A stretch of DNA of 64,000 bases from Balneolales bacterium (lineage in GTDB: Bacteria; Bacteroidota; Rhodothermia; Balneolales; Natronogracilivirgulaceae): contig SLNO01000024.1 of the NCBI GenBank assembly GCA_007132975.1, positions 1-64,000 of the forward strand. Direction: 5' to 3'. Below the pieces are notes generated by a model, which was not told where the DNA came from, did not search any database, and saw nothing but the letters and a program-made list of their open reading frames with translations. Shown one piece after another: positions 25,345 to 64,000 of the stretch. The translations under genes and the position numbers were made by a program. Positions within the stretch are counted from its first letter, which is position 1. The number at the start of each line of letters is the position of its first letter.

Positions 25345-28152
25345 TTAATTCCGGTCCTGAAGCTTGCTGTCCAGCTCCTCAAGAAGCTCGCCGTAACGCG
25401 CCCAGTTGCCGTCGTTCATGGCCTGCCGCAGCTCCTGCCACAATGAACGAATCTCCTCCAGTTCGCGCTCCGAGACAGCGCTCACCGGACGGCGCGCGGC
25501 TGGATCCGTAACCGGCAGCGGCTCCTCCATCTGCGCGATCAGCTCATCTTCGTCTGGCATCCGCACCGGCATGACTCCTGGATCCAGGAAATCAAGCTCG
25601 TCGCCGAACAGGTCGATCATAGCTGCCCGAATGGTCGGCTGCATCGAAATATCGTCGCCCACGGCAACGATGACCCGTTGCAGCTGGGGAATGTCGTCGC
25701 GGTCGGCCAGCAGAAAAACCGGCTCCACATACATGAAGGAGTTTTCGATAGGCACCACAAGCAGGTTGCCGCGGATCACCCGGGAACCGCGCTGGTCCCA
25801 AAGAGCAAGCTGCCGTGATATCTCGGGATCCTGGTCAATGCGTGACTCGATCTGCGCCGGTCCAAATATCAGCCGGTCCTTGGGCAGCCGGTAGGTGACC
25901 AGCTCGCCGTAGTGTTCGGGGTCGGATCGGGCCGCCATCCACGCAATCATGTTGTTCCGGCCCTCCGGTGTGAACGGACTGATGAGCATGAATTCCAGCT
26001 CCTTGCCGGAGTTGTCGCCGCCGGATACTTCACCACCGGCACTTTCACCGCCCGGGCTGTCTGGCAGATGGCCGAGTACGTAATACGGTTCCATGGTCAT
26101 CCGTCGTCCGGCATACACCTCAAACGGCCGGCGCCAGCGGTCTTCGTCGTTGTAGAAGACACGCGGGTTGGTCATGTGGTAGCGGCTGTACTGTTCCATC
26201 TGCACCTCGAAGAGGTTGACAGGATACCGGAAATGCTCCTGGAGTCCGTAGGGGGCCTCATCCACCGGTATGAACATGTCGGGAAAGATCCTCTGGTAGA
26301 TGCCGATGATCGGGTCGCTATTGTCGATCACATAGAACGTGACCGTGCCGTCGTACGCATCCACAGTCACCTTGACGGGATTGCGCATGTAGTTGATGCC
26401 GCGGTTGGGCTCCGAGTAGGGGAATTTGTTGGATGTGGTGTAGGCATCCTGGATCCAGATCAGGCGTCCGTCGTGCACCACCAGATAGGGATCCTCGTCG
26501 AGCTGCAGGAACGGGCTGACGCGGTTGATGCGGTCCTGCACCCCGCGCCAGATCTGCAGGCGGCTTTCCGGGGTGATGTAATCGGAGAGCAGGATGTTGA
26601 TGTCGTTCAGTTCCCAGGCGAAGAGGAGTTTGCGCAGGAAACTGCTGATCGGGATGCCGCCGCGACCGGTGTAATGGTGGTAGACGTTGCCGTCGCCGGA
26701 GGGATAGTGCAGCTCCTCGGTGGTGGTGTTGACGATGAAATAACCCGGGCTGACCTTGCCGTAGTAAATCGCGGCGTTGTCGATGGGGATGTCGGGGTGG
26801 GTGACCGGCGGGAGGTCACGGGCGATCATTAGCGGTTCGCCCTGGCGGTTGGCGGCGTTCACCGGACTCATGGCAATGCCGAAGCCGTGGGTGTACTGCA
26901 GATGGCGGTTGACCCATGAGCGGGACCCTTCAGGCAGACGGGGCGAGAGTTCACGTCCGGCCAGCATCACCTGCTGCTTCTGTCCGTCAATGGTGTACCG
27001 GTCGATGCCGATGGTATTGAACTGGTAGTAGGGACGGATCTCCTGGAGCTGGCGGTAGGTCTGGATGAGCAGCCGATGGTCCCACAGGCGAATGTTCTCG
27101 ATCGCTTGCTGGTTGTTGCGGATATCGTCCACGCGCAGGGTGTCGTCGGCGGGATAGTCGACTTCGCGGACACGGTCGAGCCCGAAGGCGAGCCGCGTCA
27201 TGGCAATATTGTTCTCGATGAACGGCCGCTCCACCTCCAGTTCGTTGGGGTTGACGCGGAACTGCTGAACGGCGGAGGGGAGTAGGCCGCGCCCGATGAT
27301 AAGCACCAGCACGGTAAGGGCCGCGGTGGCGATCATGACCTTGCCGAGCTTAATCCACCGGCTCAGGAAAAGCAAGACGGCCAGCAGCGCAGTGAGGATG
27401 GAAGCCGCCCACAGTGCAGGCAGTTCGATGTTCACATGGGTGTAGCCGGCGCCGAAGACAGCCCCATCCTCCCGGAAAAGGAGCTCGTATCGCGACAGGA
27501 AAAACCCGGCGGCAAGTATGAGAAGCCACAGGGCGGCGTTGAGCTTGAGGTGGTTGAGGGCGGGTGGATGGGCTTTGAGCCCTTGGCCGGGCCGGGCGCT
27601 GATCATGTCGGTGACGAAATAGACGACGGCCAGCAGGAAAGTGACGAAAAAGAAAAGTGCGGCGAGCGAGCCCTGGATCAGGTTGAGCAGGGGTAGCTGG
27701 AACATGTAAAAGCTGATTTCGCGGCCGAAGACCGGATCGGTGGCGCCGAAGGACTGGACGAAAAAGAAGCGGAGGGCATCGTCCCAGCGGAACATGATGG
27801 CCAGGGAGAATATAAGCGCGGTGAACAGCCCCAAAAGGGTGAAGCCGTTGCGCATCCATTTGAACTGGCGCTCGTACGGGACAGCAATGTTGAGACTGCC
27901 GGTGATCATGGAGACCAGCCGGGAGTCGCGCAGCAGGTGCGCAAGGTAGCGGAAGTTCAGCAACAGGTAGAGCGCCGCGATCAGGAATGATCCCGTGAAG
28001 AGCAGCAGTTGCGTACCCTTGAGCACCCGGAAGACGTCGGCGTACCCCAGCTCGCGGAGCCAGAGCCACTCCATGATCCAGCTGGAGAAGAGCATCAGCA
28101 GGATGATCGGTACGATGATGATAAGGGCAATGCGCAGGATTCGTAAGGTCAT
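25345..28152 (-). CDS. UPF0182 family large membrane protein
   Basis: 935 residues. Seven or so N-terminal membrane helices (first at about 5-27) precede a large extracytoplasmic domain with conserved UPF0182 stretches such as NIRLWDHRLLIQTYRQLQEI, YTHGFGIAMSPVN, IYYGKVSPGYFIVNT and WIQDAYTTSNKFPYSEP. The function of this widespread family is unknown. A Gly/Ser/Glu-rich insertion (SPGGESAGGEVSGGDNSGKE) interrupts the C-terminal third, and the last 60 residues are a charged helix, probably coiled coil. It stands alone, convergent to the subtilase gene. Confidence 0.9.
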   Translation of the reverse strand: MTLRILRIALIIIVPIILLMLFSSWIMEWLWLRELGYADVFRVLKGTQLLLFTGSFLIAALYLLLNFRYLAHLLRDSRLVSMITGSLNIAVPYERQFKWMRNGFTLLGLFTALIFSLAIMFRWDDALRFFFVQSFGATDPVFGREISFYMFQLPLLNLIQGSLAALFFFVTFLLAVVYFVTDMISARPGQGLKAHPPALNHLKLNAALWLLILAAGFFLSRYELLFREDGAVFGAGYTHVNIELPALWAASILTALLAVLLFLSRWIKLGKVMIATAALTVLVLIIGRGLLPSAVQQFRVNPNELEVERPFIENNIAMTRLAFGLDRVREVDYPADDTLRVDDIRNNQQAIENIRLWDHRLLIQTYRQLQEIRPYYQFNTIGIDRYTIDGQKQQVMLAGRELSPRLPEGSRSWVNRHLQYTHGFGIAMSPVNAANRQGEPLMIARDLPPVTHPDIPIDNAAIYYGKVSPGYFIVNTTTEELHYPSGDGNVYHHYTGRGGIPISSFLRKLLFAWELNDINILLSDYITPESRLQIWRGVQDRINRVSPFLQLDEDPYLVVHDGRLIWIQDAYTTSNKFPYSEPNRGINYMRNPVKVTVDAYDGTVTFYVIDNSDPIIGIYQRIFPDMFIPVDEAPYGLQEHFRYPVNLFEVQMEQYSRYHMTNPRVFYNDEDRWRRPFEVYAGRRMTMEPYYVLGHLPDSPGGESAGGEVSGGDNSGKELEFMLISPFTPEGRNNMIAWMAARSDPEHYGELVTYRLPKDRLIFGPAQIESRIDQDPEISRQLALWDQRGSRVIRGNLLVVPIENSFMYVEPVFLLADRDDIPQLQRVIVAVGDDISMQPTIRAAMIDLFGDELDFLDPGVMPVRMPDEDELIAQMEEPLPVTDPAARRPVSAVSERELEEIRSLWQELRQAMNDGNWARYGELLEELDSKLQDRN

Positions 28153-28271: not shown

Positions 28272-28400
28272 GGCATGTGGCGCTGGATTTAGCCGGTATC
28301 CCACCAGTGTCACAGACCACATGGCGAGGTGCATCCGATATCCCACCAGTGTCACAGACCGTGTGGCAAGATGCAGCCGGTATCCTACCTGAGTCGCAGC
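28272..28400. repeat. Tandem 42-bp repeats (about 2.5-3 units)
   Basis: Units start at 28293, 28335 and 28377 (CCGGTATCCCACC, CCGATATCCCACC, CCGGTATCCTACC), so the period is exactly 42 bp. Units one and two share CCCACCAGTGTCACAGACC. A degenerate half unit precedes. They fill most of the 312-bp gap between two leftward genes. The period is a multiple of three and one plus-strand frame stays open through them, but that frame looks non-coding. Confidence 0.75.
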
Positions 28401-34617: not shown

Positions 34618-36567
34618 CTATTTCACCAATGTCATGGTGCGCGTCAGCACCTTGCGCGCAGGATTACGGCCCGTTAGGCCCTGATTGTGCCCCACTCTAC
34701 TATCATTGTCCATGCCGACACCGGCTGCGAAGTAACCGCCCACTTGCAGCCTGCTGATGTAGACACCGCTGGACAGTCCGGATGCATCAAAATCAACAGT
34801 ATGCCGTCCGGCCTGCCGCCGTTCGTTGACCAGCAGGGCTACGCGCCGCCCAAGCATATCGAATATTTCAAGGCGCACATCAGCGGCCTCAGTCAAGCTG
34901 AACGAGATTCGGGTTGTGGGATTGAAAGGGTTGGGATGGTTTTGCGACAACCTGATTTCCAGCGCGGTATCCTCATGCGGCCCTGGATCTGATACATAGG
35001 TATCCGTATCCTGCATGGACATGTGCGGGTATCCGTTATTAACGGAGTGGTCGGTATCGTGAATCCATGTATGTTCGAAATTCCAGTTTGCAAAAACACC
35101 CTCTGCGTAGGGATAGGTCATTTCGTCGGTTGTGCGTCCGTATCCTCCATCACTCTCATCCTGTTCCGTTTTCTCGATATCGTAGTAGGAGTCAATGACG
35201 TTTTCGGATGAATCGCCGTCATTCAGGCCCACGAGGCCCCCTGCCTGATCGGCGTCAAAGACTTTTCCGACGGCATAGGAATTGGTGATTTTTCCACTGC
35301 GCCGATTTGCTTCGGTATTGTGGCCAACCAGCCCTCCGACCATGTTATCGCCTTTGACACTGCCTGTCGCATATGAATTTTCAATGATTGCATATGATGA
35401 GTTCACACCTGCAAGGCCACCAACCCGGACATCTCCATCCACCGATCCCGTTGCAAAAGCCCTGATGATACTTCCTCGGTTTGATCCCACCAGTCCACCG
35501 ATCTGGCCCAGCCCCCCGGAGCCTGTCACGTTGCCCGATGCGAATGTCTGATGCCGCCAGTATGAAGTTGGATAATAGATGATTTCGCCATTATCGGTAT
35601 CCCCTACAAGTCCGCCTATAAAGGACTCTCCATCAACATCACCGGTCGCATAGGAGTCGGCAATTTTGCTGTTATGAAGATAACCGACCAGTCCCCCCAC
35701 TCTCCATACACCCGTGACATTGCCGGTGGCGTAACAATTTACCAAATCATATCCCCTGCCGGGATTGTATGATCCTGCAAGACCTCCGACTCTGTTGCCT
35801 GTGCCGGTGACGTCCCCAGTAGCATGGGAAGTGCTAATGGAGCTCCTCAGATTAACCAAGCCCGCCAGGCCTCCGGCGTACGTGAGACCCTCCCCGGTGC
35901 CTGTGACATTGCCGTCAGCATGGGACCTGTCGATGCGTGCATCAGCGGTAACACGGCCAGCCAGTCCGCCAACAGCGTATTCACCGGTTACATCTGCAGA
36001 CGCATGCGAATCGGTTATGATGGCGCCCTGCTGTCTGATCTCTCCGACAAGTGCACCGACAGAAGTGTGCCCATTGAGGACGCCTGAAGCATAAACCCCT
36101 GATATGGTTCCTTCTACATTACGGCCAGCCAGTCCACCAACATTATTTTGGCCAGTGATATCGATATCGGCCAAGGTCACATTTTTGATGAGGGCTCCTT
36201 CCGTATCGGCGAAAAGACCTTGATGATCTTCATCGGGGCGATATATATAGAGTCCGCTGATGGTATGACCGTCACCGTCGAGGGTTCCGGTAAACGGAGC
36301 ATTATCGGGGTCATTCCAGTCGATATAAATCCCGATGGCCTCCCAGCCATTTTCTTCATTCCATGGTGCAATACCCAGGTCGATATCGTCCACCAGAATG
36401 AAGTGTGCACTCAAGTGATCCCGGACATTGTGCAATTGTTCGGCAGTCTGGATTTGCCAGGGACTGTCAGGTGTACCGTCACCGCCGGCAAACTGTGAGT
36501 GAGCGGTTCCGGAAAAGGCGAGGAGAAATAATGCAATGAGCGGAAAAGCGCTGTAATAACGGTTCAT
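34618..36567 (-). CDS. Secreted GLUG-repeat surface protein with type IX-like sorting domain
   Basis: 649 residues. After a signal (LFLLAFSGTAHS) comes a fold that begins GGDGTPDSPWQIQTAEQLHN and holds about ten repeats with VGGLAG or VGGLVG, spaced about 30-40 residues, each with a Y/HATGxVTG partner: the GLUG motif of surface adhesins. The C-terminal sorting domain starts LSQNHPNPFNPTTRISFSL. Its last hairpin carries an extra 28 or so residues (AAGVGMDNDSRVGHNQG...) before TRTMTLVK, which is unusual. Element A of the dispersed repeat forms its leader. Confidence 0.88.
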   Translation of the reverse strand: MNRYYSAFPLIALFLLAFSGTAHSQFAGGDGTPDSPWQIQTAEQLHNVRDHLSAHFILVDDIDLGIAPWNEENGWEAIGIYIDWNDPDNAPFTGTLDGDGHTISGLYIYRPDEDHQGLFADTEGALIKNVTLADIDITGQNNVGGLAGRNVEGTISGVYASGVLNGHTSVGALVGEIRQQGAIITDSHASADVTGEYAVGGLAGRVTADARIDRSHADGNVTGTGEGLTYAGGLAGLVNLRSSISTSHATGDVTGTGNRVGGLAGSYNPGRGYDLVNCYATGNVTGVWRVGGLVGYLHNSKIADSYATGDVDGESFIGGLVGDTDNGEIIYYPTSYWRHQTFASGNVTGSGGLGQIGGLVGSNRGSIIRAFATGSVDGDVRVGGLAGVNSSYAIIENSYATGSVKGDNMVGGLVGHNTEANRRSGKITNSYAVGKVFDADQAGGLVGLNDGDSSENVIDSYYDIEKTEQDESDGGYGRTTDEMTYPYAEGVFANWNFEHTWIHDTDHSVNNGYPHMSMQDTDTYVSDPGPHEDTALEIRLSQNHPNPFNPTTRISFSLTEAADVRLEIFDMLGRRVALLVNERRQAGRHTVDFDASGLSSGVYISRLQVGGYFAAGVGMDNDSRVGHNQGLTGRNPARKVLTRTMTLVK

Positions 36568-36667: not shown

Positions 36668-37029
36668 TGAAGTCAAAAAAACAATGAACAGGAGACCAAA
36701 TACTATGCGGATTCTATTCGCTCGGTCCTGAATGCGATGGTCCGGCTGCATCTCTGTGGTGTTGCTGCGACATGGATCCGGAATGAATACTGTACTTGTC
36801 GCTGAGAAACCCTCTTTCTCTGGACATAAATAATGGATATGGCAAACAAGCAACTCTTACACTTCGATGTAAAATGCTGAATTGAATTGAAAAAACAAAA
36901 AAAATCGGCGCTGGATCACAGCATGTGCTCGTTTTTACTGAGTGAAATTATGATTGGTCAGGGTTTGTTACTGCTACAGCGGCACGTAGTTTATTATGAA
37001 CTAAAATTGTGTGATATCTGGGAATTATT
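36668..37029. other. Intergenic DNA between divergent genes
   Basis: This is mostly AT-rich DNA without a convincing gene. A segment at 36668-36694 (TGAAGTCAAAAAAACAATG then AACAGGAG) is nearly repeated at 40600-40629 upstream of the DmpA-type gene. A poly-A stretch is near 36890. Confidence 0.35.
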
Positions 37030-37126
37030 GGAGAATCTACATGATAGCTTGGAACATGCCCAATTGAATGGGTTGTTGTCATGGACGTTCTATGTGACCT
37101 TGGAAATCTAATTTTTTAAACAGTTA
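37030..37126 (+). repeat. Dispersed leader element, copy B
   Basis: This copy lies just upstream of an MscS gene. The 3' half is well kept: GTCATGGACGTTCTATGTGACC, GAAATCTAATT and TTTTAAACAG. The 5' half has diverged, but the arm ATCTACATGAT (37035-37045) still pairs with GTCATGGACGT (37078-37088) at 9 of 11 positions including wobbles, and the inner hairpin CCCA/TGGG is present. AGGAG is absent. The frame MDVLCDLGNLIF (37081-37119) ends at the conserved TAA. Twenty bases lie between that stop and the MscS start. Confidence 0.6.
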
Positions 37127-37138
37127 AAATATCAGCCA

Positions 37139-38140
37139 ATGGAAGAGCAACCAATCGATCAGCCAGTCGACATAGAGATAAACAATGATCAAGTTTTTGA
37201 AGAGCAACCCATTGAAGAACTCATAGCCGAGTTTGCCGTGACCGGGAAGGAGTGGGTGATCAATGATCTGCCGGGAGTGATCGTGGTCATTGCCATTTTC
37301 ATTATCCTGTTCAAAGTGGTCAGCATCGTTTTCCGCAAAATCCGAAAAAACCTGATCAACCGTGCGGAAAAAAAAGAGGAAGTGGACTCGAACGAAGCGG
37401 CAAAACGCATCAACACCCTGACAAGCATTTCCCATGGTTTTGTAAGGGTGCTTCTCTGGATACTGTTCTTTATGATGCTGCTGCAGAACGTGGGGATCAA
37501 TATCGGACCCATCCTGGCCAGTGTGGGTATCATCAGTCTTGCCGTCGGATTCGGAGCGCAGGAGCTGGTCAGGGATTACATCTCGGGCTTCTTCATGCTC
37601 CTGGAAGACCAGATACGCGCCGGCGATGTCGCCATTCTTAACGGAACCGGCGGTTTTGTGGAGAAAATTGAACTACGGACCACTACTCTGCGCGATTTTT
37701 CCGGTATCGTGCACGTCTTCCAGAACGGAAAGATCAACTCGCTGTCGAACATGACCAAGGAGTGGTCGGCCATGGTGTTCGACATCGGCGTGGCGTACAA
37801 GGAGGATGTGGATGAGGTCATGGATATCATGAAGCAGGTCGGCGACGAACTCTGCGAGGATCCCGATTTCAAGGACCTGATCCTGCCGCCGGTAGAGATC
37901 TTCGGCCTGGATGATTTCGCCGACAGCGCCCTGGTCATCAAGGCGCGCATCCGCACAAAGCCTATCCAGCAGTGGACCGTGGGACGCGAATACCGAAAGC
38001 GGCTGAAAAAAGCCTTCGACCAGAAAAATGTTGAAATCCCGTTCCCGCACAGGACCATCTACTGGGGCGAGGAGATCAATTCACTTAAAGTTGATGCGAA
38101 TAACCACATCAAAGGCGAGATTAGGAGCAAAAACGAGTAA
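37139..38140 (+). CDS. Small-conductance mechanosensitive channel (MscS family)
   Basis: 333 residues. An acidic N-terminal stretch precedes three helices (about 43-65, 95-118, 122-150). The pore helix and following beta domain show ILASVGIISLAVGFGAQELVRDYISGFFMLLEDQ, here recognised in parts: SVGIISLAVGFGAQ then LVRDYISGFF. A hydrophilic cytoplasmic domain follows to about 320. It releases osmolytes on hypo-osmotic shock. The gene lies behind element B; another MscS-family gene is at 53021-54106. Confidence 0.93.
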   Translation: MEEQPIDQPVDIEINNDQVFEEQPIEELIAEFAVTGKEWVINDLPGVIVVIAIFIILFKVVSIVFRKIRKNLINRAEKKEEVDSNEAAKRINTLTSISHGFVRVLLWILFFMMLLQNVGINIGPILASVGIISLAVGFGAQELVRDYISGFFMLLEDQIRAGDVAILNGTGGFVEKIELRTTTLRDFSGIVHVFQNGKINSLSNMTKEWSAMVFDIGVAYKEDVDEVMDIMKQVGDELCEDPDFKDLILPPVEIFGLDDFADSALVIKARIRTKPIQQWTVGREYRKRLKKAFDQKNVEIPFPHRTIYWGEEINSLKVDANNHIKGEIRSKNE

Positions 38141-38196: not shown

Positions 38197-38298
38197 ACAT
38201 GAAATGTCCATGACCGGACATCTACCGGTCACACAGGAGTATGATTAAAAACGTCATGGACATTCTATCTGACCATATAAATCCAACATTTTAAACAG
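38197..38298 (+). repeat. Dispersed leader element, copy C (best conserved)
   Basis: The copy starts ACATGAAATGTCCATGACC. Arm ATGTCCATGAC (38204-38214) is perfectly complementary to GTCATGGACAT (38253-38263). The inner hairpin is GACCGG (38212-38217) with CCGGTC (38225-38230) around ACATCTA; its first bases overlap the outer arm, so the two stems compete slightly. AGGAG (38235-38239) precedes the ATG of a 17-codon ORF (38241-38294). The TAA lies in TTTTAAACAG, followed by ATG at 38299, which here begins only a five-codon frame and then a terminator. Confidence 0.75.
38241..38294 (+). CDS. 17-codon mini-ORF inside element C
   Basis: The frame reads MIKNVMDILSDHINPTF and is preceded by AGGAG one base before its ATG (closer than the usual spacing). 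The same length and stop position recur in element E (MFKNVMVILCVLMNQAF). The two differ by nine base substitutions and no indels, all changing the amino acid, so the peptide itself is not under visible selection. It may act as a leader whose translation opens the long stem, or be a by-product of the element. Confidence 0.3.
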   Translation: MIKNVMDILSDHINPTF

Positions 38299-38301
38299 AT
38301 G

Positions 38302-38339
38302 AAAGAGCCGTTCTGATTTGTTTCAGGATGGCTCTTTTT
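38302..38339 (+). terminator. Intrinsic terminator right after element C
   Basis: AAAGAGCC (38302-38309) pairs with GGCTCTTT (38330-38337) across a 20-base loop, and the T-run continues to 38339. It sits inside and after the five-codon frame that starts at the end of element C. It may end the MscS transcript or a short RNA made of element C alone. Confidence 0.65.
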
Positions 38340-38558
38340 GCATTATTAGGCTTGTAACCATCGGCACCGTTGGCATCACCTCCATTGGCATTACCACTAG
38401 TATTGCACGAGCTGTTTTTCCAGCATAGTTTTCCAGCAGAGATTGTATTATATCATTATCTCATTCCATCCCTAAACCAACCTGGAGTTGAAATGCGCCA
38501 TTTTGCAATTCCTTTGACGTCATTGATGAACACTTCAGGGAAATCTCGAAAATTGAAT
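38340..38558. other. Leader before the sialate esterase gene
   Basis: This 219-bp stretch continues the esterase frame to the left without stop, but lacks signal-peptide character. I take it as untranslated leader. Starts at 38493 or 38526 cannot be excluded. Confidence 0.35.
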
Positions 38559-45332: not shown

Positions 45333-46751
45333 TCAGCCGGCCAGCTTTCGGATCATCCCGTTGAAGATGAAAAAGTGGAAAGGCAGTACCAGATACCAGT
45401 ACAGGCGACCCCAGACCCCGCGTGGACGGAATGTGGCTTCCTGTATCAGCCTGTCCTCCTCAATACGGAATTCCAGCCAGGCCTCGCCCGGCAGCCGCAT
45501 CTCGGCAAACAGCAGCAGCCGTCCTTCGTCTTTGTCGGCCAGCAGCACCCGCCAGAAGTCGAGGGTGTCGCCGGTGCTGATATCGTCCAGGGATGTGCGC
45601 CCGCGCCTCAGCCCGACCCCGCCGAAAAGCTTGTCAAGGAAGCCCCTTATGCCCCATAGCCAGTCGGCGTAATACCAGCCAGTCTGCCCGCCGATGGACC
45701 ATATCCGGCCCAGCACACCGTCCCGGTCGCGTATTGGCCGCTCCTTCCGGTCCTTGAAACAGCCAAATTTGGGTACCTGGATGTGCTGGCCAAGCCCGGT
45801 CCGCAGCCTGCCGCTGATGAGGGAGTCCTTCCAGCTGGAAAGGATCGCGTTCTGCTCGATCTTTTCAAAAGCCCGTGATACGGCCTCTGCGTAGGGAATA
45901 GGTTTGATCCGGAGCATCTCTGGCAGGTCATTGTCGCGGCAGGTCACATCCACCTTCATGCTGTCGACCAGCTTCACCGCCAGCGAGTAGGTTGTGGAAG
46001 TGACAAAATAGAGCCAGTACGAAGATAGCTTGGGAGTGAGCACCGGAACGGTGACAATGGCGCGCCGCAGTCCGCGTACCCTGGCGTACTCCATCAGCAT
46101 CTGCTTGTAGGTGAGCACATCCGGCCCGCCAATATCGAAATTCCGGTCCCAGGTACGCTCATCGCCCAGGCATCGCTCCAGATACGTTATGACATCCCTC
46201 ACGGCTATGGGCTGCGAGCGGGTTTTCAGCCACTTCGGGGCGATCATCACCGGCAGCTTCTCCACAAGATCGCGGATGATCTCGAACGATGCGCTTCCCG
46301 AGCCGATGATGATGCCGGCCCGCAGTGTTGTGAGCGCATAGCTTCCAGAATCCAGGATGTCCTCAACCTGTTTGCGCGATGCCAGATGCTTCGACAGGTT
46401 CTGGTCGTTGATGATGCCGCTCAGGTAGATCACGTGCCGTACATTGGTCCGGTCCATGCAATTCCGGAAATTTTCGGCCGACTGACGCTCCAACTCCTCA
46501 AAATCACCGGACCGGGAGGACATGGAATGCACAAGATAATACGCCCCGTCAATATCGTCAGGGATGCTTTCAAGAGAATCGGAGTCAAGGAAATCCGCCT
46601 CCACCACCGTAACCCTGGACGCCAGATCCCTTCCCAGGTTAAGGCGCCCGCGGTCCCGCACGCAGCAGACCACATCGTGGCCTTTTTCGACCAGTACGGG
46701 CAGCAGCCGCTTGCCAATGTAGCCGGTTACGCCGGTGAGCAGTATTTTCAT
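45333..46751 (-). CDS. NAD(P)-binding SDR-type protein with C-terminal DUF2867
   Basis: 472 residues. The N-terminal Rossmann domain begins ILLTGVTGYIGKRLLPVLVE (GxxGYIG dinucleotide site); YYLVHSMSSR and VRHVIYLSGI are typical of the YbjT-like atypical SDR branch. From about residue 320 a DUF2867 domain follows (RTSLDDISTGDTLDFWRVLLAD, WGRLYWYLVLPFHFFIFNGM). The substrate is unknown; some relatives act on quinones or isoprenoid-like molecules. Elements D and E lie in tandem directly upstream and D ends at the start codon. Confidence 0.88.
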   Translation of the reverse strand: MKILLTGVTGYIGKRLLPVLVEKGHDVVCCVRDRGRLNLGRDLASRVTVVEADFLDSDSLESIPDDIDGAYYLVHSMSSRSGDFEELERQSAENFRNCMDRTNVRHVIYLSGIINDQNLSKHLASRKQVEDILDSGSYALTTLRAGIIIGSGSASFEIIRDLVEKLPVMIAPKWLKTRSQPIAVRDVITYLERCLGDERTWDRNFDIGGPDVLTYKQMLMEYARVRGLRRAIVTVPVLTPKLSSYWLYFVTSTTYSLAVKLVDSMKVDVTCRDNDLPEMLRIKPIPYAEAVSRAFEKIEQNAILSSWKDSLISGRLRTGLGQHIQVPKFGCFKDRKERPIRDRDGVLGRIWSIGGQTGWYYADWLWGIRGFLDKLFGGVGLRRGRTSLDDISTGDTLDFWRVLLADKDEGRLLLFAEMRLPGEAWLEFRIEEDRLIQEATFRPRGVWGRLYWYLVLPFHFFIFNGMIRKLAG

Positions 46752-46855
46752 CTGTTTAAATCAATTAATATTCATAAGGACAGTATGAATTCACATGACA
46801 GGATTTAATTATTCTCCTGTGTGCCAGCTGGTGGCTGTCGTGTTCATTTCATGTG
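46752..46855 (-). repeat. Dispersed leader element, copy D
   Basis: D is head-to-tail with E and ends TGATTTAAACAG at the start codon of the SDR gene. It keeps ACATGAAATG, CACACAGGAG, ATTAAA and GTCATG. The arms ATGAACACGAC and GTCATGTGAAT pair at 8 of 11 positions; one position (A-U here, C-G in copy C) is compensatory. The inner hairpin is GCCA/TGGC, different in sequence from copy C. The mini-ORF start is ATA instead of ATG and the frame carries a one-base shift, so it is probably not translated. Confidence 0.65.
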
Positions 46856-46955
46856 TTTAAAATGCTTGATTCATGAGGACACATAGAATGACCATGACGT
46901 TTTTAAACATGCTCCTGTATGTCCGGGAGATACCGATCATGTTCATTTCATTTTT
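46856..46955 (-). repeat. Dispersed leader element, copy E
   Basis: E is directly upstream of D. Arms ATGAACATGAT and GTCATGGTCAT pair at 10 of 11 positions, with a U-A to A-U exchange relative to copy C (compensatory). The inner hairpin is CGG/CCG. ACAGGAG precedes the mini-ORF, and the TTTTAAAC that ends E runs straight into the ACATGAAATG that begins D, giving a period near 103 bp. Confidence 0.65.
46857..46910 (-). CDS. 17-codon mini-ORF inside element E
   Basis: The frame MFKNVMVILCVLMNQAF is the same length as that in element C. AGGAG lies one base before its ATG, closer than usual, and its TAA is inside TTTTAAAC. No database family is known to me. See the entry for element C for the argument against selection on the peptide. 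Confidence 0.3.
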   Translation of the reverse strand: MFKNVMVILCVLMNQAF

Positions 46956-47870: not shown

Positions 47871-48500
47871 ATGCAATTATTGAAAATTACGGCATTGGTC
47901 ATCGCTGCGCTCATGATCCTGCTGCTTCCTCGCCAGGCGGATGCCCAGCTTCTGGATTACGGTTTTAAGGCCGGGGTGAACATCTCGTCCGTGACCAACT
48001 CGGTCTACCGAACCGGCTCCATGACGGGGTCCCATTTCGGCATGTTCGCCGCCTACAACTTCCGCATTCTGCCGATTTCCATCCAGACAGAGATGCTTTA
48101 CTCCCAGCTGGGTACCGAATATGACGAGATTGTCATTGGCTTTCAGGCACCGCGTCCGGCCTCCCTCCGCATGAACTACATCCAGTTGCCACTGCTCGTT
48201 AAGGCGCACCTGCCCATCCCGGGACCAGTCACACCCAATATTTTTGGTGGACCGTACGTCGGCTTCCGGTCGGGGATATCGTTCAATTTCGGCGGCATGG
48301 ATGTGCCGCAGGCTGAGGAGTGGTATCGTGACGGCGATTTCGGATTTGTGGTTGGGGTTGGGACCCGGGTGGGCTTTTTTGTAGTCGATCTTGATCTGGA
48401 AGTGCGTTTGCTGTTTGGCATGGAAAACATATTCGATCGGCAGTTTGAATATGATGAGCAGCACCGCGCCATATCATTCTCCGCCGGTATCGTCTTCTGA
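47871..48500 (+). CDS. Outer-membrane beta-barrel protein (PorT-like family)
   Basis: 209 residues. A signal (ALMILLLPRQADA) is followed by strands typical of the PorT/outer-membrane beta-barrel family of Bacteroidetes: YGFKAGVNISSVTNS, HFGMFAAYNFRILPISIQTEMLYSQLG, LRMNYIQLPLLVKAHLP and PYVGFRSG. It ends with a strand of the AISFSAGIVF type and terminal Phe. Function unknown; many relatives are in envelope or sorting loci. Element F forms its leader. Confidence 0.8.
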   Translation: MQLLKITALVIAALMILLLPRQADAQLLDYGFKAGVNISSVTNSVYRTGSMTGSHFGMFAAYNFRILPISIQTEMLYSQLGTEYDEIVIGFQAPRPASLRMNYIQLPLLVKAHLPIPGPVTPNIFGGPYVGFRSGISFNFGGMDVPQAEEWYRDGDFGFVVGVGTRVGFFVVDLDLEVRLLFGMENIFDRQFEYDEQHRAISFSAGIVF

Positions 48501-63352: not shown

Positions 63353-64000
63353 ATGAGCAGCACGCCGTCACAAAGCAACAGGAATCCGAAGATGTCCCCG
63401 AAAAGCAGTTCCGGGGAGGGATCAATGCATGATCCGCGGGACAATCCTAAAGGGATATCGCAGAAAGGGGCAACACCGAAAAAGACAATGCCCAAGGGTG
63501 CAGCGCAGAAAGGGGCAACGCCTGAAAGGGGAACGCCCCGGGGTGATAATCATTTGGATGGTGGATCGGAGTCCGGCCGCAATCCGGGCCTGCATCCCGA
63601 AAGCCGCGCGCTGCACGCCGGATGGCACCCGGACGCGCCGGGCGAACCGCTTGCCCCCTCATGGGACCCATCCACCGTATTTCGCCATCCCGAACAGGGC
63701 CTTTCCGGCGACAGCTGGAGCTACACCCGCCTCGACAACCCCAACCGCTCACAGCTGGAGCGGACGCTTGCATCCCTCGAAGGCGGTTCCGAAGCGCTCG
63801 CTTTCTCCTCCGGCATGGCGGCGGTGCAGGCCGCGTTCCACATCCTGGAACCCGGCGACCATGTGCTGCTGCCCGACGATCTCTACCATGGCGTGCGCAA
63901 CCTCATCACGGATCAATACGCCCGTTGGGGACTCACATTTGATTTTGTGGACATGACCCGCCCCGGTGATGTCACTGCGGCGGCCAACCCGAAGACCCGG
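63353..64000 (+). CDS. PLP-dependent Cys/Met metabolism enzyme (cystathionine gamma-synthase/lyase-like), partial
   Basis: The frame is open from ATG 63353 to the window end. From about residue 87 it reads LHAGWHPDAPGEPLAPSWDP, YTRLDNPNRSQLERTLASLEGG, ALAFSSGMAAVQAAFHIL and DDLYHGVRNL, the N-half of the Cys/Met-metabolism PLP family; the PLP Lys lies beyond the end. The first 85 residues are Lys/Gly/Pro-rich with QKGATP repeated and are not part of the fold, so starts at 63425 or 63488 are equally possible. Lyase or synthase activity cannot be told from this half. Confidence 0.8.
   Translation, partial: MSSTPSQSNRNPKMSPKSSSGEGSMHDPRDNPKGISQKGATPKKTMPKGAAQKGATPERGTPRGDNHLDGGSESGRNPGLHPESRALHAGWHPDAPGEPLAPSWDPSTVFRHPEQGLSGDSWSYTRLDNPNRSQLERTLASLEGGSEALAFSSGMAAVQAAFHILEPGDHVLLPDDLYHGVRNLITDQYARWGLTFDFVDMTRPGDVTAAANPKTR

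What the first reader, a model, noticed from the sequence alone, without database searches (positions are those of the whole stretch)
38204..38263. Long-range stem in the element with compensatory changes between copies
Seen directly: in copy C an 11-nt arm at 38204-38214 is perfectly complementary to 38253-38263. In E the fourth pair is A-U instead of U-A, and in D the fifth pair is A-U instead of C-G; F changes one pair to a wobble. The inner hairpin is kept with different sequences (GACCGG/CCGGTC in C, GCCA/TGGC in D, CGG/CCG in E, CCCA/TGGG in B, ACAG/CTGT in A). This pattern is what selection on structure gives, though the sample is only six copies.
Basis: seen in the sequence. Interest (0 to 1): 0.7.

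Follow-up and report, generated by a model that had tools for sequence, protein, structure and literature searches.

The report
Mobile hairpin element inserting at start codons
The "RNA stem" is part of a roughly 100-base mobile DNA repeat, present in dozens of copies in this bacterium and its relatives, that inserts just behind a gene's first codon (after ATGAA) and rebuilds that start codon at its own far end; no enzyme that could move it was found.

Summary
The 11-nt stem in copy C is real, but alone it is no better than chance: the window holds 4 such inverted repeats, shuffles 0-5. It becomes meaningful as part of a ~100-nt repeat with at least 78 copies in this genome, and in other Balneolales (91 and 40 copies in two better-assembled relatives). 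G.T and A.C mismatches in P1 are equally common, so the pairing need not act in RNA.

Orthologous genes show occupied and empty sites. The element sits exactly between the native upstream region plus ATGAA and the rest of the gene, with a second ATGAA at its right end. Species have independent insertions at the same start codons (mdh, pheT, ispF and others). A genome of another class has 73 matches to the core box and the same layout.

Best reading: a small non-autonomous mobile element that targets ATGAA, mostly start codons, and regenerates it. Y1, reverse-transcriptase and IS110 families are not co-distributed, so the mobiliser is unknown.

The parts
38199..38203 (+). left target ATGAA of copy C (kept from the pre-insertion site)
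   Evidence: boundary rule from occupied/empty orthologues of other copies; sequence
38204..38303 (+). copy C: inserted unit, 100 nt, ending with the regenerated ATGAA
   Evidence: body 100% identical to copies in L001 and L002 at loci with unrelated flanks
38204..38214 (+).
38215..38227 (+). inner hairpin CGG-loop-CCG (or GACCGG/CCGGTC, which competes with the top of P1)
   Evidence: kept with other sequences in G225
38230..38249 (+). conserved unpaired core box CACACAGGAGTATGATTAAA
38253..38263 (+). P1 3' arm
38263..38271 (+). internal guide TTCTATCTG, pairs with CAGATGAA 38296-38303 (P2)
   Evidence: covariation of s: 168 of 208 complementary, p 9e-20; 19 of 19 in G225
38296..38303 (+). right end CAGATGAA: P2 3' arm and regenerated target; in copy C it opens only a 5-codon ORF
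46847..46953 (-). upstream copy of a tandem pair in front of the epimerase-like gene 45333-46751
   Evidence: site empty in five congeners
46746..46854 (-). downstream copy of the tandem pair; its final ATG (46751-46749) is the gene's start codon
47767..47876 (+). copy ending at the start codon (ATGCAA, 47871) of the outer-membrane beta-barrel gene 47871-48500
   Evidence: site empty in L040, L041
36562..36668 (-). diverged copy ending at the start codon of the GLUG-repeat gene 34618-36567
37020..37130 (+). degenerate copy (right half recognisable) just upstream of mscS 37139-38140

Best explanation
It is a small non-autonomous mobile element of about 95-101 nt, with longer variants. It inserts directly after the sequence ATGAA, mostly the start codon plus two bases of a gene in sense orientation, and its own right end (CAsATGAA) rebuilds the ATGAA. 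The gene keeps an intact start behind a new leader, while the native start codon becomes a 2-4 codon mini-ORF. Shown by sequence: dispersal, exact insertion site, duplication of ATGAA, reuse of the same start codons in different species, tandem growth at the regenerated ATGAA, and conserved P1 and P2 pairing. Inferred: the hairpin P1 is the recognition structure and the internal guide TTnYATsTG selects the ATGAA junctions by base pairing, as guides do in single-strand (IS200/IS605, REP) transposition; a trans-acting enzyme not yet identified does the cutting and joining.
For: At least 78 copies in the genome, all ten genus genomes positive. Empty versus occupied sites with exact ATGAA boundaries at the window's epimerase and OMP genes and at mdh, metK, pheT, ispF, carbonic anhydrase, OsmC, pstA-like and other genes, with independent hits at the same codons. 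115 of 173 array ends start ORFs of at least 60 aa and 19 more run off the sequence; all ATGAA sites 25%. Identical copies at loci with unrelated flanks. P1 and P2 covariation. Same layout and P2 covariation (19 of 19) in a genome of another class.
Against: No mobiliser: Y1_Tnp in 1 of 10 genus genomes and absent from G017 with its 40 copies, RVT_1 and Transposase_20 absent from most carriers. No autonomous copy. Guiding is not tested; the copy at a TTGAA site (L027) does not show a matching guide change. In G225 only 5 of 15 terminal copies begin a long ORF. Start-codon enrichment may come partly from selection against insertions elsewhere.
Confidence: 0.8

Rival explanations
1. A cis-regulatory RNA leader: the mRNA 5' UTR folds into P1 and P2, with P2 hiding the start codon, and copies are kept in place by selection for regulation (riboswitch-, thermometer- or sRNA-type).
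For: Copies end exactly at start codons in sense orientation; P2 pairs with the AUG region; copy C RNA folds better than most shuffles.
Against: No Rfam family; downstream genes unrelated; congeners lack it at the same genes; no excess of G.U over A.C; tandem copies and non-start sites occur.
Confidence: 0.12
2. A non-autonomous derivative of a Y1 (HUH) system, that is an IS200/IS605 PATE or a REP mobilised by TnpA_REP. On the bottom strand the order target-guide-hairpin-target matches that topology.
For: Guide-to-end complementarity; hairpin next to the guide; intact target left in the flank; guide logic known in these systems (PMC8266576). Y1 genes exist in G001, G011, G013 and G225.
Against: Y1 absent from 9 of 10 genus genomes and from G017, and present in the carrier-free G015, G016, G018. 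Y1 loci are not flanked by copies, except one in G225, which chance allows.
Confidence: 0.2
3. Spread by homologous recombination or gene conversion of leaders, with no transposition.
For: Tandem copies share junctions and could be homogenised by recombination.
Against: Insertion into previously empty sites without shared flanks, with exact ATGAA boundaries.
Confidence: 0.03

Closest known systems
REP/REPIN elements with TnpA_REP (RAYT)
   Same: Many short extragenic hairpin repeats, often in arrays; short guide next to the hairpin; targeted by IS110-type insertion sequences
   Different: ~100 nt rather than 20-40 nt; ATGAA start-codon target with regeneration; no tagged GTAG hairpin in P1; no co-distributed Y1 gene
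IS200/IS605-derived non-autonomous elements (PATEs)
   Same: Insertion 3' of a fixed short target kept at the left, an equivalent sequence at the right end, guide complementary to it
   Different: One hairpin and one guide serve both ends; TnpA not found in most carriers; target is the start codon
Bacterial MITEs such as Correia elements, RUP, ERIC/RU
   Same: ~100-150 bp, many copies, near gene starts, short target duplication
   Different: No terminal inverted repeats; fixed ATGAA target; rebuilds the start codon exactly
TAACTGA start-codon repeats (PMC4679880)
   Same: Repeats just upstream of many unrelated start codons, also in some Bacteroidetes
   Different: Heptamer tandem repeats; no hairpin, no ~100-nt unit, no ATGAA duplication described

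Membership tests
REP/RAYT (REPtron) | Y1 TnpA_REP gene in the same genome | tested here: not met
   PF01797 in 1 of 10 genus genomes; none in G017 with 40 copies
REP/RAYT (REPtron) | 20-40 nt palindrome tagged by GTAG or CGTC | tested here: not met
   the unit is 95-101 nt and P1 has no such tag; some 19-nt linker hairpins contain GTAG
IS200/IS605 derivative (PATE) | TnpA (Y1) available in carriers | tested here: not met
   present in G001, G011, G013, G225 only
IS200/IS605 derivative (PATE) | guide complementary to the ends next to a hairpin | tested here: met
   168 of 208 copies and 19 of 19 in G225; no biochemical test
MITE | terminal inverted repeats | tested here: not met
   ends ATGTCC... 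and ...TTTAAACAs are not inverted copies (alignment)
MITE | target-site duplication | tested here: met
   ATGAA on both sides in occupied sites, once in empty sites; equally readable as a target plus an element end
Cis-regulatory RNA family | match to a described RNA family | tested here: not met
   no Rfam match at gathering score in the window
Cis-regulatory RNA family | conserved association with particular genes | tested here: not met
   unrelated genes, mostly empty sites in congeners
Cis-regulatory RNA family | G.U-biased compatible changes on the transcribed strand | tested here: not met
   63 G.T versus 56 A.C
Group II intron or other retroelement | reverse transcriptase in carriers | tested here: not met
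   RVT_1 in 5 of 20 genomes
IS110 (bridge RNA) derivative | IS110 recombinase in carrier genomes | tested here: not met
   PF02371 in 5 of 21 genomes, none in the genus

The most novel reading that the evidence does not exclude
A new class of guide-directed small mobile element in the phylum Bacteroidota (sensu GTDB). A 95-101 nt hairpin DNA (or its RNA) finds start codons by base pairing its internal guide with ATGAA and is inserted by an enzyme unrelated to known transposases. It builds tandem leaders in front of essential genes without breaking them.
Probability: 0.3. Interest if true: 0.87.

Novelty: new variant of a known kind. Interest (0 to 1): 0.7.

Why it matters
A mobile element that lands in the start codons of essential genes (metK, mdh, pheT, ispF) and restores them as it inserts would be a very clean example of harmless, site-specific parasitism. 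It would also repeatedly replace bacterial 5' leaders. The target rule, empty sites and covarying guide make the mechanism directly testable, and the missing enzyme is a concrete discovery target.

Tried and rejected
RNAalifold on the MAFFT alignment returned no pairs, probably because subfamilies shift the right arm; explicit pair counting and per-copy pairing replaced it. A coding mini-ORF from the box (ATGATTAAA...TAA) was rejected: it is 17 codons long in 88 copies but otherwise varies from 4 to 39 codons, with single-base indels. A sigma-70-type promoter was not found around copy C. An autonomous version with the ends split around a gene was not found in the fetched DNA; the few left/right pairings are in one G017 region and look like diverged copies. 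Inverted copies in G026 and G050 flank ordinary genes, most copies ending at a gene start, so they are not a composite transposon. L207 and L223 (other Bacteroidota) first looked like chance box matches; they carry the left half, and L223 ends at a flavodoxin-like start codon, but they are too diverged to claim firmly. No match in plasmid or phage collections. Literature searches found no start-codon-targeting element; the library is open-access only.

Full report
Observation. The two 11-nt arms at 38204-38214 and 38253-38263 are exactly complementary. Alone that means little: four such inverted repeats lie in the window and ten shuffles gave 0-5. Copy C folds only a little better than shuffles, with z -2.3 as RNA and -2.6 as DNA on the other strand. 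Six related copies are in the window. The compensatory changes claimed from six copies are mixed: the copy with the altered fourth pair has a mismatch at the fifth, and the minimum-energy folds of the other copies do not form the stem as described.

Family. BLAST of copy C against its own genome gives 63 matches. A profile finds 78 copies in the fetched loci, up to four or five in a row. The ATGAA-to-ATGAA period is mostly 95-97 or 99-102 nt, with variants near 120. Tandem copies share the junction CAsATGAA. All ten genomes of the genus and most of the sampled family carry it; G013 has 91 copies and G017 has 40, while G015 and G016 of the same family have none. Named records place it in Balneolales MAGs, mostly from one sediment series (CSSed). 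That these are soda-lake sediments is my own knowledge of the sample names.

Insertion site. Orthologous gene sets show species with and without the element. Occupied: native upstream - ATGAA - element - ATGAA - gene. Empty: native upstream - ATGAA - gene. The mdh gene is an example...tttattatcATGAA|ATATCC...AAACAG ATGAA|AATAACTG in G000, and ...atattatcATGAA|AATAACTG in G009. The same is seen at metK, pheT, a carbonic anhydrase gene, a pstA-like gene, OsmC, the epimerase gene of the window and others. Different species have different copies at the same start codon (mdh, pheT, ispF, OsmC, pstA-like, carbonic anhydrase), so these sites were hit repeatedly. Gene names here rest on the translated starts and my knowledge of the families, except those. 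Of 173 array ends with ATGAA, 115 start an ORF of at least 60 aa and 19 run off the sequence, against 25% for all ATGAA sites. The native start codon is left with a stop after 2 or 4 codons in 123 of 139 cases. Copy C is an exception: its right ATGAA opens a five-codon ORF that abuts AAAGAGCC...GGCTCTTTTT, which looks like the end of the mscS transcript (sequence; not called by the terminator scan). Copy C's body is identical to copies at two other loci whose flanks are unrelated to its own, so the spread is recent.

Structure. P1 and P2 were counted on 75 copies: 87% paired, 66 two-sided changes against 28 in shuffles, and slid structures no better than 38%. Two measures, the number of pairs with two-sided changes and of further pair types, did not exceed shuffles. 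Per-copy pairing on 262 distinct copies gives a median P1 of 12 positions, with clear exchanges such as G-C to A-T and C-G to A-T or T-A. P2 joins the guide TTnYATsTG to the element's right end CAsATGAA; s is C or G and complementary in 168 of 208 copies (p = 9e-20; copies are related, so the p-value overstates independence). At CAs left flanks, the left s is preferentially not complementary (65 vs 20, p = 1e-6), as if perfect repeats on both sides were unstable. G.T (63) and A.C (56) mismatches in P1 are about equal, so structure in either DNA strand explains the data as well as RNA does.

Wider family. A core box of the element, searched in 395 genomes across the phylum, matched G000, G050 and two others. 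One of the two, G225, belongs to another class and has 73 matches to a relaxed box, with none for the reversed control pattern. Its copies have the same order of parts with different sequences: ATGAA|ATGCCC...GGGCAT...CCATsTG...AAACAs ATGAA, and guide and right end are complementary in 19 of 19. That is independent support for P2. Of the 15 terminal G225 copies, 5 begin an ORF of 60 aa or more, so start-codon use is weaker there.

Mechanism. Insertion after ATGAA with regeneration of ATGAA is shown by the empty sites. That P1 is the recognition structure and that the guide selects the site is inferred from conservation and from the parallel with IS200/IS605 and REP systems, where guide tetranucleotides choose cleavage sites (PMC8266576). 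The classical enzymes are not co-distributed: Y1_Tnp, RVT_1, Transposase_20. No autonomous copy was seen. The mobiliser is therefore unknown.

Verdict. The stem is real as part of a mobile element, and the conserved-structure claim survives a larger alignment. The interesting object is the start-codon-targeting element. It is filed as a new variant of small non-autonomous mobile repeats and not as a REP, MITE or RNA family, because tested defining features of each were not met.

Noticed in passing
L252 1790-2400; L303 644-700; L189 1854-1951: Insertions inside the element's conserved box (..ATGATTATA|..): an IS110-family ORF in L252 (G225), an IS110 region in L303 (G013) and similar flanking sequence in L189, as if IS110 elements use this repeat as a target, like REPs in other bacteria (PMC1525189).
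   Followed up: partly
L021 2575-2636; L017 2178-2196; L049 1907-2033; L064 2649-2815: A second, ~19-nt hairpin repeat (CTGAAAGTCACGAAGTGAA / CCGAAGGTCGCGAAGCGCT) with compensating arms sits between tandem copies after ATGAA, in reverse complement inside the guide (G013), or inside the tail (G017); it may be a smaller mobile repeat with the same target.
   Followed up: partly
all tandem arrays: The base s in the left-flank CAsATGAA is preferentially not complementary to the copy's guide (65 vs 20), opposite to the right end.
   Followed up: partly
first copies of arrays: After insertion the native start codon runs into a stop after 2 or 4 codons in 123 of 139 cases (e.g. ATG AAA TGT CCA TGA).
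   Followed up: partly
window 38302-38340: Hairpin AAAGAGCC...GGCTCTTTTT directly at the right end of copy C, probably the mscS terminator; the insertion lies at its foot.
   Followed up: no
L061, L062: Isolated element-bearing small contigs in G026 and G050, genomes otherwise free of the element: horizontal transfer or misbinned contigs.
   Followed up: partly
window 28277-28399: Three tandem 42-nt imperfect repeats within the reading frame of ORF 25345-28152 or just outside it.
   Followed up: no
window 63446-63535: Short-period imperfect direct repeats (15/30 nt) within the ORF 63429-63956.
   Followed up: no
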